5,906 nucleotides of DNA from the NCBI GenBank assembly GCA_021767305.1, contig JAASTL010000078.1:1-5906 (forward strand). Direction: 5' to 3'. The notes below the pieces were generated by a model. The model ran no database searches, had not been told where the DNA came from, and saw only the letters and a program-made list of their open reading frames with translations. Shown piece after piece: positions 272 through 5,906 of the stretch (positions are counted from its first letter, which is position 1; each line of letters begins with the position of its first letter). This stretch comes from Piscirickettsiaceae bacterium. GTDB lineage: Bacteria; Pseudomonadota; Gammaproteobacteria; Thiomicrospirales; Thiomicrospiraceae. The position numbers and the translations under genes are program-made.

Positions 272-299
272 TTGAAAAACTATACAATATCTATACAAT
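272..299 (+). promoter_or_regulatory. Candidate sigma70-type promoter of the photolyase-like operon
   Basis: TTGAAA (272-277) and TACAAT (294-299) each match the sigma70 consensus at 5 of 6 positions with a 16-bp spacer. Transcription would start near 306 and give a leader of roughly 130 nt before the ATG at 434. TATACA boxes lie in the spacer and overlap the -10, so a regulator binding them would act directly on this promoter. In AT-rich DNA such matches also arise by chance. Confidence 0.42.
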
Positions 300-308
300 T
301 AGTATACA
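281..308 (+). repeat. Three TATACA boxes phased at 11 bp
   Basis: TATACA occurs at 281-286, 292-297 and 303-308, exactly 11 bases apart, so all three lie on nearly the same face of the helix. The second and third boxes also frame a small inverted repeat, TATAC-AATTA-GTATA (292-306). TATACA matches the half-site TRTACA that I recall for LitR-type MerR regulators of photolyase genes, but no good inverted partner at the 12-base spacing is present. Confidence 0.5.
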
Positions 309-433: not shown

Positions 434-1246
434 ATGCGCTGGTTTGAGCACACTATTTCTGATCAATTTTTTGAAGTTAAGCCTGCTGGAAGAAGTTCCA
501 AGTGCCGCTTTAAAGATTGGATTTTGGATGATTCAAATTTTGAAGAATCCCCTATCAAAGGGGGATACAAACAGGCTGAGAAAAAACTCGAAAAGCTTGA
601 TGTTGATTATTATTCGAAATCCCGCAACCATCTTGGAGGTGGTGTATCTCAGCTTTCAGCATACATAGAGCATGGCTTAATAGACCCGGCGACCATCCTC
701 AAATATATCGATTCAACCAGTGATCGTGAAAGTGCTTATCGCTTTCTACAACAGCTCAGTTGGCGTGATTTTTTTGCCAAGCGCTACAAAGAACAACCTG
801 AGAGTGTTTGGGTTGATTTACAACCTTATAAAACAGGTTATACAGCCGACGATTATGCTGATGAACTACCGGCAGACATAGCAGAAGCACAGACCGATGT
901 CGCAGTAATCAACCAGTTTATTAAAGAGATGCAGCAGAATGGTTACCTACATAACCATGCACGTCTCTACCTTGCTGCCTATATAGTTCACTGGCGCCGT
1001 GTTAAATGGCAGGTGGGTGCGCGCTGGATGCTGAAATATTTGATTGATGGCAATATCGCTTCAAACAATTATTCTTGGCAATGGGTTGCCAGTACCGGCA
1101 GCAATAAACCCTATATTTTCAACCTAGAAAACCTGCGTAAATATGTGCCAGATGACGAATACAACCTCAATACCGAAGATAACAAAGCCATCACCGGCAC
1201 CTATGATGCTCTTAACCATAAACTCTTCCCAAAACGGAGTAATTAA
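434..1246 (+). CDS. Short photolyase-like protein (FAD-binding domain only)
   Basis: A 270-residue protein equivalent to only the C-terminal FAD-binding domain of DNA photolyase/cryptochrome; full-length members are about 450-500 residues and begin with an alpha/beta antenna domain, absent here. Family landmarks appear in order: GGYKQA near 43-48, the SQLSAYIEHG helix (72-81), SWRDFF (109-114), HNHAR (173-177) and LIDGNIASNNYSWQWVASTG (203-222). By eye, N211 matches the Asn facing FAD N5 in E. coli photolyase, while W192 and W215 match two members of the tryptophan electron-transfer chain. The outer Trp seems missing (no Trp between 126 and 187; Tyr136 or Tyr141 lies nearby), and the usual DGD is DGN. 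It probably binds FAD and acts in DNA photorepair or light sensing; the choice is open. The partner gene starts 2 bases after its stop. Confidence 0.88.
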   Translation: MRWFEHTISDQFFEVKPAGRSSKCRFKDWILDDSNFEESPIKGGYKQAEKKLEKLDVDYYSKSRNHLGGGVSQLSAYIEHGLIDPATILKYIDSTSDRESAYRFLQQLSWRDFFAKRYKEQPESVWVDLQPYKTGYTADDYADELPADIAEAQTDVAVINQFIKEMQQNGYLHNHARLYLAAYIVHWRRVKWQVGARWMLKYLIDGNIASNNYSWQWVASTGSNKPYIFNLENLRKYVPDDEYNLNTEDNKAITGTYDALNHKLFPKRSN

Positions 1247-1248
1247 TC

Positions 1249-1668
1249 ATGGACTTTAAAAACAATACCACTTGGATTTGGTTACAAGCGAATGATTTAA
1301 ATGCCAATCACCCAGCAATTCAGCAGGCCGGTGAATACGATGCCATTCTGTTTATCTGGGACGAAGCGCACTTTGCATCACAATTTTATTCCAAGCAACG
1401 TCTGTTTTTTATTTGGCAATGTCTGCAGGACTTTAAAGACTTGCCTTTAATAGTGATTAAAGGTGAGACAGACTTAATTCTCAAAAGGTTATACAAAGAC
1501 AATCCTGACACAGTCATTTTCAGCCCAGAAAATCCGAACATCAGTTTCTCCAGATGGCCGTTTGTCACCTCTCTGAGTCAAGAGCAATTGATTAAGTTTG
1601 ATAAAAAGCTGCCGTTTAGCTTTTCTAAATTTTGGAAAAGTGCTGAAAAACAGCTTTTTGCCAGCTAA
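1249..1668 (+). CDS. Stand-alone photolyase N-terminal-like alpha/beta protein
   Basis: This 139-residue protein resembles the N-terminal Rossmann-like (HUP) domain of photolyases, which normally precedes the FAD domain in one chain. Likely strands are TTWIWL (7-12), DAILFIWDE (31-39), LPLIVIKGE (65-73) and DTVIFSPENPN (87-97). DLNANHPAI (16-24) aligns with the family's DLRLHDNPAL stretch, and LPFSFSKFWK (121-130) recalls the F-x-x-F-W run that follows this domain in cryptochromes. The normally conserved RRDLR reads QANDL, so the usual basic residues are lost. Its ATG lies 2 bases after the stop of the FAD-domain gene, and its GGAG ribosome binding site (1236-1239, 9-base spacing) sits inside that gene, so the two are translated from one message. 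I infer that it docks on the FAD-domain protein. Divergence is high; it could be an unrelated Rossmann-fold protein. Confidence 0.62.
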   Translation: MDFKNNTTWIWLQANDLNANHPAIQQAGEYDAILFIWDEAHFASQFYSKQRLFFIWQCLQDFKDLPLIVIKGETDLILKRLYKDNPDTVIFSPENPNISFSRWPFVTSLSQEQLIKFDKKLPFSFSKFWKSAEKQLFAS

Positions 1669-1696: not shown

Positions 1697-2104
1697 ATGC
1701 AAAAATGGCACTCTTATTTAGGTTATGGCGGACTTATTCCATTTATTGGTTTGAGTCTACTAGCTCTGTCTGGGGGCACACTATTTAATGAACCCGCGCG
1801 CTTTTATCTTATTCCTTATGGCGCACTCATTTTTAGCTTTATTGGCGGGATTTATTGGGGTGTTACGCTTAGCAATACAAACAAAACTATATTGTTACTG
1901 GTCTCAATCACTGTCATGCTTTGGGCATGGCTTTGGATTATCCTGCCGGGTATTCCACCTTCTTTAATGGCTTTGAGTTTTTGGCTTTTACCCCTATTTG
2001 AATTTTTCTATTTAAGACAGGTATTTAATTCTGAATTTTTACTGATGCGCAGAGTGCTCTCAATCATTGCAGGAATAAGTTTAGCAACACTCTGTTTCGT
2101 CTAA
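1697..2104 (+). CDS. DUF3429 family inner-membrane protein
   Basis: A 135-residue hydrophobic protein with about five likely membrane helices: near residues 7-26, 38-58, 64-83, 86-106 and 117-135. LGYGGLIPFIGL near the N terminus and YGALIFSFIGGIYWG (41-55) are typical of DUF3429, a membrane family of unknown function that I recall occurring beside photolyase-family genes. There is no signal peptide beyond the first helix. It starts 28 bases after the preceding gene with only a weak GTGA as ribosome binding site. An in-frame TGA at 1685-1687 rules out a longer start. It is the last gene of the plus-strand operon and ends facing pdxH. A biochemical role cannot be read from the sequence; a part in membrane light-stress or flavoprotein function is inference from position only. 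Confidence 0.82.
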   Translation: MQKWHSYLGYGGLIPFIGLSLLALSGGTLFNEPARFYLIPYGALIFSFIGGIYWGVTLSNTNKTILLLVSITVMLWAWLWIILPGIPPSLMALSFWLLPLFEFFYLRQVFNSEFLLMRRVLSIIAGISLATLCFV

Positions 2105-2186
2105 TTAACTTTCATAGCAATTAAAATCAATTATTTAGTCTCTACAGAAAAGTTTAATTTACCAGCCATGGAGCTAAGTTCACAGA
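2105..2186. other. Convergent intergenic gap without a clear terminator
   Basis: Both operons end here, 82 bases apart. A 6-bp inverted repeat TAGTCT/AGACTA (2136-2141 with 2184-2189) and a direct repeat of ATGGAGC (2168-2174, 2189-2195) are present, but no GC-rich stem followed by a T-run was found on either strand. Transcription may end by Rho or run into the opposing gene. Confidence 0.45.
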
Positions 2187-2879
2187 CTATGGAGCCAGTC
2201 GGCTAATCTGCCAGCCGCTATCCGTTTTTTCTTGTGGCTGATAAACGATTCTATCGTGAATACGATCTTTACCCCCTTGCCAAAACTCAAAATAGACGGG
2301 TTCTACGCGATAACCTCCCCAAAACTTTGGGAACTCAATCTCTTTTTCTTGGAACTGCTGTTTCAACTTGGCAAATTGATTCATCAATACAGAACGCGAA
2401 GAAACTACTTTACTCTGCTCACTGACCCAAGCTCCCATTTGGCTTCCTTTTGGGCGTGAAAAAAAGTAATCCATTGATTCTTTGGTGGAAATCTTACTCG
2501 CCTTGCCACGAATCTTGACCTGTCTTTCCAAATCCAACCATAAGAACTGCAAACTCACTAACGGATTATTTTCAATCTCTTGCGCTTTACGACTGCCGTA
2601 ATTGGTAAAAAAGACAAAACCTGATTCATCGTATTTCTTTAACAAAACTGTTCGAGTATTTGGCCAACCCTGTTCATCAATAGTGGCCACTACCATTGCA
2701 TTAGGTTCAGTTAATTGCTGCTGTTGCGCTTCAAAAAACCACTGTTCAAACTGCTTAAACGGATTAGTCGCAACACTAGATTCATCTAACTCACCACGCT
2801 CATAAGAGCGACGTAGATCATGCAGTTCTTGACCAACAACCTCACTCTGGTGAGCGTTTTTGAACGGTTTTTCACTCAT
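2187..2879 (-). CDS. pdxH: Pyridoxamine/pyridoxine 5'-phosphate oxidase
   Basis: A cytoplasmic FMN enzyme that oxidises pyridoxine or pyridoxamine 5'-phosphate to pyridoxal 5'-phosphate with oxygen, the last step of vitamin B6 synthesis and salvage. The 230-residue product has the expected length and landmarks: DLRRSYERGELDE (21-33), RTVLLKKYDESGFVFFTN (76-93) with GSRKA (95-99) for FMN, SRPKGSQMGAWVSEQS (141-156), and the C-terminal signature WGGYRVEP...FWQGGKDRIHDR (187-210) ending in SRLAP. A GTG at 2918 in frame would add 13 residues, but the ATG at 2877-2879 is preferred because AAAAGGA (2888-2894) lies 8 bases upstream and the family starts there. It lies 83 bases after the TIGR02450 gene on the same strand with no separate promoter visible, so cotranscription is plausible. 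No key residue appears missing. Confidence 0.96.
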   Translation of the reverse strand: MSEKPFKNAHQSEVVGQELHDLRRSYERGELDESSVATNPFKQFEQWFFEAQQQQLTEPNAMVVATIDEQGWPNTRTVLLKKYDESGFVFFTNYGSRKAQEIENNPLVSLQFLWLDLERQVKIRGKASKISTKESMDYFFSRPKGSQMGAWVSEQSKVVSSRSVLMNQFAKLKQQFQEKEIEFPKFWGGYRVEPVYFEFWQGGKDRIHDRIVYQPQEKTDSGWQISRLAP

Positions 2880-2887
2880 TAGAATCG

Positions 2888-2894
2888 TCCTTTT
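2888..2894 (-). promoter_or_regulatory. Ribosome binding site deciding the pdxH start
   Basis: AAAAGGA on the minus strand with 8 bases to the ATG at 2877-2879. It selects the shorter 230-residue PdxH over the in-frame GTG at 2918, which has no comparable site. Confidence 0.75.
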
Positions 2895-2915
2895 ATATTT
2901 TTCAGTAATGACAAA

Positions 2916-2961
2916 CACTTGGATAGGCGCTTAGACAAACACTTAGACAAGTACTTATGAG
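2916..2961 (+). repeat. Degenerate 12-bp tandem repeat in the pdxH leader
   Basis: About four 12-base units stand in register: CACTTGGATAGG, CGCTTAGACAAA, CACTTAGACAAG and a decayed TACTTATGAG. They fill most of the gap between the TIGR02450 stop and the pdxH ribosome binding site. They fit the consensus CACTTWGACRAG at 9, 10 and 12 of 12 positions, the last unit more poorly. The same unit type recurs at 4486-4561. Confidence 0.65.
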
Positions 2962-2962
2962 T

Positions 2963-3181
2963 TTACTTCCAACCCTGTTGCCATTGTTCACTATTTTTTA
3001 GCACTTCAGCTGTGATGGTATAACTATTTTTCGTCATTACCGCCTCTAATTCTAAATCAATCAACTGACCGGTAACTTCATCTTCATTAACGGCAACAAC
3101 CAGAAAGTGTTTCTCTCTATTTTGAGGGTTGAGCGCGGTCCATTTCGAGTGAAATAACTTTTTCGGGTTGAAACGGTTCAT
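2963..3181 (-). CDS. TIGR02450 family small Trp-rich protein
   Basis: A 72-residue protein of the small tryptophan-rich family TIGR02450 (DUF2389-like), whose function is unknown. Its hallmark segments are visible: NPKKLFHSKWTALNPQNREK (5-24), EAVMT (46-50) and the C-terminal EQWQQGW (65-71), with Trp at 14, 67 and 71. Length is normal and there is no signal peptide or membrane helix, so it is probably cytoplasmic. I recall this family in cyanobacteria and gammaproteobacteria, often near photolyase/cryptochrome genes, which fits this locus. Its ATG overlaps the TGA of the upstream hydrolase in an ATGA arrangement (3178-3181), and no strong ribosome binding site precedes it, so translation is probably coupled to the hydrolase. 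The reason for that coupling is not evident. Confidence 0.88.
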   Translation of the reverse strand: MNRFNPKKLFHSKWTALNPQNREKHFLVVAVNEDEVTGQLIDLELEAVMTKNSYTITAEVLKNSEQWQQGWK

Positions 3182-4230
3182 GATGATTCAGCTCTATGCT
3201 CAATAAAGGATTGTAAGTTACGGTAAAAAGCATTCGGTTTTTCTATCCACGGAAAATGTCCGCAGCCATCAATTAGATGTTTACCCGCAAACTCCAGATG
3301 CTTTTCCATCGCATCCAAGTTGTATGGCATAAGATAATCTTGCTTACACTCTAGGAAATAGCTTGGTTTATTGAGTTTTTGCAGTTGCGGGTAAGTAATT
3401 GGGTTAGCGTCATAGGCCTTCCATGCAATGACATTGAGGTCGATATTAAAGTCATCTAAACCAAATTGCTCGGCGTACTCTACACCTTGTTGATAATTCA
3501 AAAAGTAAGTTGGAAGTACCTGTTTTATCTGCTTTAGGGTAATACGGTCTAGTTCACTTTCAGCAACTTCCGTTTTATGTTCCCAGTTTGCCTCATCATC
3601 CCAGGCTAAATTTAATTCTGTGCGGTTACGTAGATCAATTTCGCGAGTGAGATTACGCATCGCTTTCTTTTCCGGATCAACGGGGTTTAATAGAATAATT
3701 TTAGCTACATACTGAGGGAATTCTCGGGCATACAGCATAGCCATTAAGGCACCCCATGAGTGTCCAATAACAACAGCGGGGTGATCCATACCAGTTTTTG
3801 CTTGCCAATGGGATTGCACAGCATGAATCTGCTGGTTCCATGTTTGTAGAAGTTGCTCAGGACTCTCTTCAACTGCTGATATGTTTAATAATTCGCGGTT
3901 TTCCCCAATACCAATCATATCCATTAAGACAACGTCCTTATTCCAAGCACTGATGGCTTGTTGAATAGGTTGCAAGTTCCAACTAGAAAATCCTGGTCCG
4001 CCACCTAATAGAATCACCAATTGTTTGGGTTGACTGGCATTTGCAGAGTTGATTAATAAGCTACTAGAGACATTTGATTGTGAATGATTTGCTTGCCCTA
4101 CTTTAAGGTGAAATTTGAGGGGTTGCTGCTGAAACTGAATAGTGGATGCTTGAGAGTTGTAACCTGATGCCATTGCCCAGGTAGAAATAAAACAGAGGGA
4201 GCTGAACATTAAATATCTGCTGAACTTCAT
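3178..4230 (-). CDS. Exported alpha/beta hydrolase (proline iminopeptidase-like)
   Basis: A 350-residue alpha/beta-fold hydrolase. Residues 1-21 form a signal peptide with a hydrophobic core and an AMA cleavage motif (19-21), so the enzyme probably acts in the periplasm. GGGPG (76-80) provides the oxyanion-hole loop, GHSWG (156-160) carries nucleophile Ser158, Asp298 in the CKQDYLMPY loop is the likely acid, and His325 in GCGHFPWIEKP completes the triad. HGGPG-like plus G-x-SWG motifs suit proline iminopeptidase-like or related hydrolases, but the substrate cannot be read; a lipase, esterase or lactonase role is equally open. The start is supported by AAGGG (4240-4244) with about 9 bases to the ATG. 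It heads the minus-strand run, overlaps the TIGR02450 gene by 4 bases, and has a long structured leader. Confidence 0.86.
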   Translation of the reverse strand: MKFSRYLMFSSLCFISTWAMASGYNSQASTIQFQQQPLKFHLKVGQANHSQSNVSSSLLINSANASQPKQLVILLGGGPGFSSWNLQPIQQAISAWNKDVVLMDMIGIGENRELLNISAVEESPEQLLQTWNQQIHAVQSHWQAKTGMDHPAVVIGHSWGALMAMLYAREFPQYVAKIILLNPVDPEKKAMRNLTREIDLRNRTELNLAWDDEANWEHKTEVAESELDRITLKQIKQVLPTYFLNYQQGVEYAEQFGLDDFNIDLNVIAWKAYDANPITYPQLQKLNKPSYFLECKQDYLMPYNLDAMEKHLEFAGKHLIDGCGHFPWIEKPNAFYRNLQSFIEHRAESS

Positions 4231-4401: not shown

Positions 4402-4429
4402 ATTATATTTAATGTATAACTCTTGTCAA
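4402..4429 (-). promoter_or_regulatory. Near-perfect sigma70-type promoter reading toward the hydrolase
   Basis: On the minus strand TTGACA (4429-4424) and TATAAT (4407-4402) match the consensus exactly, with a 16-bp spacer. Transcription would start near 4395, leaving a leader of about 165 nt before the hydrolase ATG. A TATACA box (4418-4413) lies in the spacer, as at the other operon's promoter. The same DNA lies just upstream of the divergent photolyase gene. Confidence 0.72.
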
Positions 4430-4465
4430 ATATTTTGTACAATTATTTTTACATTAATAAAACAG

Positions 4466-5906
4466 ATGTTTATCTATTTCCCAATGACTTTAACGAGCAC
4501 TTTGACGAGCACTCTAACTGGCAATCTTTCTGAGAAACACTTTGAAAGTCACTCTGAGACTCAAGATGTTTCATTTGCCAACCCCTCTTTACCTAAAGTC
4601 GAGTTGGTTTGGTTTAAACGCGATTTAAGAATCAGCGACCACCTGCCTTTACTCGAGGCTTGCCGTTATGCGCAGAAAAACACGAGCCAGATTTTACCTA
4701 TCTATCTCATTGAACCAGAAATTTGGCAAAACCCAGATGCTTCTGCCCGCCATTGGCAATTTATTAATGATTGTTTAATTGAGCTTAACCAAGACCTTTC
4801 CGTGCTGGGTCAACCATTGCAAGTATTGCAAGGTTCGGCTACCGATGTGTTTGCCGATTTACTGCAACAGTTTCAGGTTCTAACCGTATGGAGTCACTTA
4901 GAAACCGGAAACCTAGCCAGCTTTAAACGCGACCTTGCTGTTAAATCTCTGCTAAAAAATCAGCAAGTGAATTGGATTGAATTCCCACAACACGCGGTGC
5001 AACGGGCTGGCATTAATCGTGATTTTTACAGTCAACTCAGCCAACATTTTTTTGCAATGCCAGTCCTACCTAAACCTGAAAAACAGGAGTTTTGGTCAAA
5101 CAAGGTTGCGGTTGAAGATCAGCAAAGCATATCTCTAAAAAACTTTGCTAGTCCAGCAAACATAACTAAGTGCTTGGAAATCACCGAAAGGATGCAAAAC
5201 CCTTATTTGGATTTCAACAAACCGTTCAATAAACCATATTCACCCTTAATCCAAAAAGGTGGTCGTTCCCAAGGCATTAAACTGCTACAGAGTTTTTTAG
5301 AACATCGCCATCGCAAGTATTTGGCAAATATTTCCAAGCCATTAGGTGGCGACCTTTTCAGCTCTAGGCTCAGCCCTCACCTTGCTTATGGCACCTTATC
5401 GATTCGAGAGGTGATGCAGCTAAGCCGAGACACACTCAAGCAAAATCGCAGTAAAGCAATGCAACCTTTTGAGATGGTTGATGAATTGGATGGCTTGGAT
5501 AATAACGAAAATAGCCTCAATCAACCCAGAAGTAGGCAGGCTAGAGGTATTCAGGTTTTTCAGCAACGCCTCTACTGGCAGAGCCACTTTATACAAAAAC
5601 TGGAAACGGAGCCGGCTATTGAAGAACATGCTATGCACCCTGCCTATGAAGACATACGTGCATGGGATAAAACATCACAACAACATTTTCAGGCATGGTC
5701 CACCGGAAACACCGGTTTTCCGATGATTGACGCTTGTATGCGTTGTTTATTGGCAACCGGCTGGCTGCCTTTTAGAATGCGGGCTTTGTTGGTGAGTTTT
5801 GCCAGTTACCAGCTTTGGATTCCCTGGCAAAAAACTGCTCATCATCTCGCCCAATTATTCACCGATTATGAACCCGGTATTCACTACTCTCAAATTCAAA
5901 TGCAAT
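4466..5906 (+). CDS. Photolyase/cryptochrome family flavoprotein, truncated at the right edge
   Basis: 480 codons are open to the window end with no stop. After an atypical N-terminal extension (1-43), the alpha/beta antenna domain starts at KVELVWFKRDLRISDHLPL (44-62) and runs to about 200. The FAD-binding part shows RLSPHLAYGTLS (301-312), RGIQVFQQRLYWQSHFIQ (360-377), WSTGNTGFPMIDACMR (411-426) and TDYEPGIHYSQIQMQ (466-480). By eye, His473 replaces the Asn facing FAD N5 in E. coli photolyase and Ile477 replaces the FAD-proximal Trp; W454 remains. This belongs to a divergent bacterial branch, not classical class I; the DYEPGIH motif seems shared by relatives, so it is probably not damage. 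The product repairs UV-damaged DNA or senses blue light. Two in-frame ATGs (4466, 4484) exist, neither with a good ribosome binding site. An extra acidic stretch lies near 337-350. Confidence 0.9.
   Translation, partial: MFIYFPMTLTSTLTSTLTGNLSEKHFESHSETQDVSFANPSLPKVELVWFKRDLRISDHLPLLEACRYAQKNTSQILPIYLIEPEIWQNPDASARHWQFINDCLIELNQDLSVLGQPLQVLQGSATDVFADLLQQFQVLTVWSHLETGNLASFKRDLAVKSLLKNQQVNWIEFPQHAVQRAGINRDFYSQLSQHFFAMPVLPKPEKQEFWSNKVAVEDQQSISLKNFASPANITKCLEITERMQNPYLDFNKPFNKPYSPLIQKGGRSQGIKLLQSFLEHRHRKYLANISKPLGGDLFSSRLSPHLAYGTLSIREVMQLSRDTLKQNRSKAMQPFEMVDELDGLDNNENSLNQPRSRQARGIQVFQQRLYWQSHFIQKLETEPAIEEHAMHPAYEDIRAWDKTSQQHFQAWSTGNTGFPMIDACMRCLLATGWLPFRMRALLVSFASYQLWIPWQKTAHHLAQLFTDYEPGIHYSQIQMQ
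4486..4561 (+). repeat. Degenerate 12-bp tandem repeat in the photolyase 5' coding end
   Basis: Units GACTTTAACGAG, CACTTTGACGAG, CACTCTAACTGG, a decayed 16-base unit, CACTTTGAAAGT and CACTCTGAGACT follow the consensus CACTTWGACRAG at 8-12 of 12 positions apart from the decayed unit. They encode a tetrapeptide-like pattern TLTS-TLTS-TLTG-NLSE. Because the unit is 12 bases, gain or loss of a copy keeps the reading frame. Confidence 0.65.

What the first reader, a model, noticed from the sequence alone, without database searches (positions are those of the whole stretch)
434..1668. A photolyase split into two genes in reversed domain order
The first gene encodes only the FAD-binding half. The next gene, 2 bases later, encodes a protein resembling the missing alpha/beta half. 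In normal photolyases the alpha/beta half comes first in one chain. Short photolyase-like proteins without the N-terminal domain are known, but a dedicated separately encoded antenna-like partner would make this a two-subunit photolyase or cryptochrome with a swapped gene order.
Basis: partly seen in the sequence, partly recalled or inferred. Interest (0 to 1): 0.72.

Follow-up and report, generated by a model that had tools for sequence, protein, structure and literature searches.

The report
Two-gene photolyase with swapped order
A light-driven DNA-repair enzyme that is normally one chain is here encoded by two neighbouring genes in reversed order, an arrangement already described in cyanobacteria, and in the genomes surveyed the two halves are almost always inherited together.

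The parts
434..1246 (+). SPL gene: FAD-binding catalytic half of a photolyase (270 aa), without the alpha/beta domain and without the Fe-S cysteines
   Evidence: PF03441 E 2.2e-21; profile of SPLs matches class I photolyases 1tez/1owl at about 8e-26; FAD-site residues kept, cysteines absent
1249..1668 (+). Partner gene: separate alpha/beta (photolyase N-terminal type) subunit (139 aa)
281..308 (+). Three exact TATACA direct repeats with an 11-base period upstream of the SPL gene; candidate operator of a LitR/CarH-type light regulator (lead only)
   Evidence: 0.01 matches expected by chance; half-site T(G/A)TACA of Pseudomonas LitR in PMC9758184

Best explanation
The two genes encode the two halves of one photolyase as separate subunits. 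Protein 1 (SPL) binds FAD and the DNA lesion and does the photochemistry. Protein 2 supplies the alpha/beta domain that in ordinary photolyases is the N-terminal part of the same chain; it docks on protein 1, probably much as in a normal photolyase, where it would stabilise the fold and may hold an antenna pigment. The two genes lie together in FAD-first order. Shown here: both domain identities, near-perfect co-inheritance, gene order, natural fusions, and genomes that encode the two far apart. Inferred: physical heterodimer, light-driven repair of a UV lesion (most likely the cyclobutane dimer), and light-induced expression. Unknown: whether an antenna pigment is bound.
For: Fold and profile of the partner. 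Partner, whole or partial, for 79 of 80 SPL loci examined. The same 21 of 62 family genomes hold both genes, each pair adjacent with SPL first (5e-17 if genomes were independent). 45 of 45 cyanobacterial SPL genomes and the same 9 of 289 genomes in the Hellea class hold both. Natural fusions, 120 of 120 listed in FAD-first order; one folds with pTM 0.92. 22 of 56 adjacent pairs have a 4-base stop/start overlap; SPL and partner trees correlate, r 0.84, 0 of 1000 permutations (vertical descent alone could give this). FAD-site residues kept in 81 of 81. Knockout and expression of the cyanobacterial counterpart phr4/phr5 affect UV-C survival (PMC9426592).
Against: No complex of the window's own proteins could be predicted, and sequential aligners could not test the domain geometry of the fusion. 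One locus (L034, contig end) has no partner found, and one genome (G152) has a partner without SPL. The window's partner alone is below the PF00875 cut-off. Foldseek gives the partner model no hit at E <= 0.001, and its first row is an adenylyltransferase. phr4/phr5 loss did not reduce UV-B survival (PMC9426592).
Confidence: 0.84

Rival explanations
1. The partner is a structural subunit without any antenna pigment: it only seals or stabilises the FAD and DNA sites of SPL.
For: FO synthase CofH, a marker of 8-HDF synthesis, is over its cut-off in 0 of 62 family genomes. No pigment could be shown here.
Against: Arg51 (62 of 64) and Asp38 (61 of 64) are kept; Arg51 aligns with the 1owl residue that PMC9178010 says salt-bridges 8-HDF (passage). 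Other pigments (flavin, lumazine, folate) were not tested.
Confidence: 0.4
2. The two genes are translated into one fused chain by a programmed frameshift, as PMC9426592 considered for phr4/phr5.
For: Short, mostly tight spacing between the genes; natural one-chain fusions exist.
Against: Of 45 cyanobacterial pairs, 9 lie 89 kb to 2.4 Mb apart on one contig and 4 on different contigs, where no frameshift can join them. Spacing varies from overlap to 226 bases. This does not exclude frameshifting in some species.
Confidence: 0.05
3. The pair is the decayed remains of a single photolyase gene.
For: Two half-length reading frames next to each other.
Against: Order is reversed relative to ordinary photolyases; both frames are intact and conserved across many lineages.
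Confidence: 0.01
4. The pair is a two-subunit cryptochrome-like light sensor, not a repair enzyme.
For: The partner's best single-sequence PDB hit is a cryptochrome (E 0.0032). The window has a second photolyase/cryptochrome gene, so repair may be covered.
Against: The SPL profile is closest to class I CPD photolyases; phr4/phr5 gives UV-C protection (PMC9426592). Neither protein has a recognised output domain in Pfam.
Confidence: 0.1
5. The partner is an unrelated alpha/beta protein (for example of the universal stress protein type) that only happens to sit in the operon.
For: 4 of 64 relatives hit Usp, best E 0.0023.
Against: 25 of 64 hit PF00875; the 50 structural rows listed are all photolyases or cryptochromes; partner kept also where the genes are far apart; fusions.
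Confidence: 0.02

Closest known systems
Phr4/Phr5 (two genes) and Phr6 (fused) of marine Synechococcus/Cyanobium (PMC9426592; SynWH7803_0266/0267 in PMC3441193)
   Same: FAD-domain gene beside a photolyase-domain gene in reversed order; homologous fused forms exist
   Different: Phr4 has four Fe-S cysteines, the window SPL has none of them; different lineage; gap of 2 bases here against 7 G-C pairs there
Short photolyase-like (SPL) class, Xu et al. 2021 (not held; seen through citing passages)
   Same: Photolyase FAD domain without an N-terminal alpha/beta domain
   Different: SPL is described in those passages as lacking the domain; here the domain is present as a second gene
NewPHL / Phr7 (Emmerich et al. 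2020, not held; seen through citing passages)
   Same: FAD domain first, no Fe-S cysteines
   Different: One chain with a C-terminal Z-domain; here a separate gene of alpha/beta photolyase type
Class I CPD photolyases such as E. coli Phr (1dnp) and Synechococcus 1owl
   Same: Both domains, FAD-site residues, partner fold
   Different: One chain with the alpha/beta domain first

Membership tests
SPL class | Photolyase FAD domain | tested here: met
   PF03441 E 2.2e-21
SPL class | No alpha/beta domain in the same chain | tested here: met
   No PF00875 match in protein 1; chain of 270 aa
SPL class | Fe-S cluster (attributed to SPL by Xu et al. as cited in PMC9649867) | tested here: not met
   Window lacks the cysteines; 33 of 80 related loci also lack the full motif, 47 have it. 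If the cluster is defining, the window is outside the class in this respect
Phr4/Phr5 | Adjacent FAD-domain gene then photolyase-domain gene | tested here: met
   434-1246 then 1249-1668, same strand
Phr4/Phr5 | Second gene encodes a photolyase alpha/beta domain | tested here: met
Phr4/Phr5 | Four conserved Fe-S cysteines in the FAD protein | tested here: not met
   None of the cysteine columns is Cys in the window
Phr4/Phr5 | UV-protective activity | not testable with these tools
   Needs experiment; in print for Synechococcus RS9916 (PMC9426592)
NewPHL / Phr7 | C-terminal Z-domain in the same chain | tested here: inconclusive
   The SPL chain ends about 40 residues after the last conserved FAD-domain motif, leaving little room; no Z-domain model was available to search
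8-HDF-binding photolyase antenna domain | Basic residue at Arg51 that salt-bridges 8-HDF | tested here: met
   Arg51 in the window and in 62 of 64 partners; binding itself not tested
8-HDF-binding photolyase antenna domain | Host makes 8-HDF (FO synthase) | tested here: not met
   CofH over cut-off in 0 of 62 family genomes; 57 of 62 have weak sub-cut-off matches; CofG not searched; the window's own genome is not held

The most novel reading that the evidence does not exclude
'Short photolyases' are not one-domain enzymes at all: across Proteobacteria, Cyanobacteria, Chloroflexi and Acidobacteria the SPL class is an obligate two-subunit photolyase whose alpha/beta subunit is a separate, overlooked gene, sometimes hundreds of kilobases away. 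That would weaken the main argument for SPL as the one-domain ancestor of the photolyase/cryptochrome family and would offer a natural system in which the catalytic and antenna-type halves can be exchanged in trans.
Probability: 0.7. Interest if true: 0.62.

Novelty: new member of a known kind. Interest (0 to 1): 0.45.

Why it matters
SPLs have been proposed as possible ancestors of all photolyases and cryptochromes because they seem to lack one domain. If the missing domain is regularly present as a second gene, that argument weakens, and assays of an SPL protein alone would have been done without half of the enzyme. A photolyase whose two halves come as separate chains also lets the catalytic and antenna-type parts be mixed, titrated and exchanged.

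Tried and rejected
The window's own genome and its relatives could not be searched: no genome is held. SPL in viral contigs: 32 pattern matches, none confirmed. Partner in plasmid records: no match. Fold search of the fused model: Foldseek and VIA-align are sequential; in nearly all listed VIA rows only the FAD half (up to about model residue 289) aligned, so they do not test the inter-domain geometry. One VIA row in that list (7pub_Ff) is not a photolyase. For the partner alone, Foldseek's first row was an adenylyltransferase (E 0.0086), no row reached E 0.001, and 39 of the 50 rows listed were photolyases or cryptochromes. A pseudogene reading, a frameshift-fusion reading and a universal-stress-protein reading were considered and are given as rivals. 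8-HDF as antenna was tested through CofH only and is not supported for this family. The first run of the cysteine script stopped with an error after printing part of its results and was redone with a motif-based count. The LitR-type repeats were not found by the motifs used upstream of SPL in L001-L003. Xu 2021 and Emmerich 2020 are not held, so a printed statement of the SPL-partner link in them cannot be excluded; my paper searches for it were made, of openly licensed papers only.

Full report
OBSERVATION. The window has two adjacent plus-strand genes, 434-1246 (270 aa) and 1249-1668 (139 aa), with 2 bases between them and different reading frames. Protein 1 matches only the FAD-binding domain of photolyases in Pfam (PF03441, E 2.2e-21). 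Protein 2 gives one weak match, to the photolyase N-terminal domain (PF00875, E 0.0044, below the curated cut-off).

WHAT PROTEIN 1 IS. A profile of SPL sequences (A1) matches class I photolyases 1tez and 1owl at E about 8e-26 over profile positions 41-230. In 81 sequences (window plus 80 loci) the residues at window positions R64, N65, S75, W192, D205, N211 and W217 are invariant; W215 is W in 75 and F in 6. In the alignment to E. coli photolyase, N211, W215 and W192 fall on what I recall as the FAD Asn378 and the electron-transfer Trp382 and Trp359; the third Trp of that chain has no clear Trp counterpart, in a poorly aligned stretch. The Fe-S cysteine set (one Cys plus CxxCx3-8C) is found in 47 of 80 loci and not in 33, nor in the window. 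By record title, those with it are mainly Cyanobacteria, Chloroflexi and Acidobacteria and those without mainly Proteobacteria.

CO-OCCURRENCE IN 80 LOCI. They are the ones most like the query, not a random sample. Partner as a separate gene directly downstream: 56 (L046 cut by a contig end) plus 8 found by a stop-to-stop search (L009, L020, L029 partial, L045, L048, L058, L068, L079), 64 in all. Fused to SPL: 2 (L069, L070). Partner not in the fetched locus but in the same genome: 11 of 11, all of genera that I recall as Nostocales; in one of them (L073) it may lie only about 4.4 kb downstream. SPL at a contig end, partner on another contig of the genome: 2 (L078 whole; L036 partial, with one stop in the match). 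None found: 1 (L034, contig end; its genome shows only a weak hit in a 469-aa frame). That makes 79 of 80.

CO-OCCURRENCE IN GENOMES. In the family of Thiomicrorhabdus sp. Milos-T2 (62 genomes), the partner (E <= 1e-10) is in 21 and SPL (E <= 1e-40) in 21, and they are the same 21; the coordinates put each pair side by side on one strand, SPL first, at most about 170 bases between matches. Two random 21-of-62 sets coincide with probability 5e-17, which ignores kinship. In 194 genomes of the class of a cyanobacterium, 45 have SPL at E <= 2.3e-80 and all 45 have the partner; one further genome, G152, has the partner alone. In 289 genomes of the class of Hellea balneolensis, SPL (E <= 3e-97) and partner occur in the same 9, each pair adjacent. 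Weaker SPL-profile hits in longer frames (8 in the cyanobacterial sample, frames 385-405 aa; 33 in the Hellea class, 381-491 aa) are never accompanied by the partner. By length these are probably NewPHL-type or ordinary photolyases; I did not type them. The three centre genomes were chosen because they hold the pair, and some members of these groups were in the profiles.

ARRANGEMENT. Of the 45 cyanobacterial pairs, 29 are adjacent downstream on the same strand, 3 lie 315-1677 bases downstream, 9 are on one contig but 89 kb to 2.4 Mb apart, and 4 are on different contigs, which may partly reflect assembly. Among 56 adjacent pairs in the 80 loci, 22 have a 4-base stop/start overlap, and spacings run up to 226 bases. 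Trees of SPL and partner correlate (n 55, r 0.84, 0 of 1000 permutations), as vertical descent would also give. All 120 listed natural fusions have the FAD domain first; they were found with a fused query, which favours fusions. The AlphaFold2 model of one fusion (L070, 453 aa; A4 with 94 rows, 58 of them fused) has pLDDT 93.1 and pTM 0.92. With one domain unplaced, pTM could hardly pass the larger domain's share of the chain (about 0.6), so the relative placement is confident; that is my inference. Whether it equals the canonical placement could not be tested.

MECHANISM. Most likely the two proteins form one photolyase from two chains. The catalytic steps (FAD excitation, electron transfer to the lesion) belong to protein 1; protein 2 supplies the alpha/beta domain. 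An antenna role is possible: Arg51 (62 of 64) and Asp38 (61 of 64) are kept, and Arg51 aligns with Arg51 of 1owl, which PMC9178010 says forms a salt bridge to 8-HDF in the Synechococcus photolyase (passage). Against 8-HDF here, FO synthase CofH is over its cut-off in 0 of 62 family genomes (57 have weak matches below it; over the cut-off in 3 of 14 control genomes; CofG was not searched). Another pigment, or none, remains open.

CONTEXT. Downstream lie a DUF3429 gene, PdxH, a TIGR02450 Trp-rich protein, an alpha/beta hydrolase and a full-length photolyase/cryptochrome that runs off the window end. Relatives L002 and L003 both have CIA30 and DUF2189 genes nearby; L002 also a ChrR-type cupin, L003 also PdxH and a DUF1731 epimerase (ten of the neighbouring genes scanned). 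Upstream of SPL are three exact TATACA repeats with an 11-base period, 281-308 (0.01 expected), matching the T(G/A)TACA half-site of the Pseudomonas light regulator LitR (PMC9758184, passages), whose published spacing is different (N12). The motif was not found upstream of SPL in L001-L003. This suggests light-induced expression but is only a lead.

PRIOR ART. PMC3441193 (2012; passages) noted in Synechococcus WH7803 two clustered genes, one for each photolyase domain, and suggested a heterodimeric complex. PMC9426592 (2022; section 5 and part 1 of the discussion) described phr4/phr5 in all marine Synechococcus it examined, the reversed order, the fused phr6, lower UV-C (not UV-B) survival on loss, and UV-C protection in E. 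coli. SPL as a class and possible ancestor is cited to Xu et al. 2021 (not held; passages in PMC9649867, PMC9498864 and PMC9178010). None of the passages I saw links SPL with a separate partner outside picocyanobacteria, apart from the remark in PMC9426592 that Nostoc punctiforme has the same gene complement.

VERDICT. What this work adds is the breadth and strictness of the pairing, the distant-gene cases that speak against a frameshift product, and the form without Fe-S cysteines in Thiomicrorhabdus relatives.

Noticed in passing
281-308: Three exact TATACA direct repeats with an 11-base period upstream of the SPL gene (0.01 expected by chance); a TGTATA also lies at 4413 beside the second photolyase gene. 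Possible LitR/CarH-type light operator.
   Followed up: partly
4412-5905: A second, full-length photolyase/cryptochrome gene runs off the window end; best NCBIfam hit is crypto_DASH at 125.8 bits, under its cut-off of 317, on an incomplete protein.
   Followed up: no
1697-4230: Neighbouring genes: DUF3429, PdxH, TIGR02450 Trp-rich protein and an alpha/beta hydrolase; several such genes are, from recall, common near bacterial photolyase genes, which was not tested.
   Followed up: no
G152 (C97:13665-14081): One cyanobacterial genome has the partner gene but no SPL hit at E <= 1e-30; incomplete assembly or a real orphan.
   Followed up: no
P0140 (692 aa): A fused SPL-partner protein from Aphanothece microscopica also carries Pfam domains PF01648 and PF22624 in the database annotation; possibly a gene-calling artefact.
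   Followed up: no
L024: A metagenome bin titled Klebsiella pneumoniae carries an SPL pair 47% identical in SPL to the query; the label is probably wrong.
   Followed up: no
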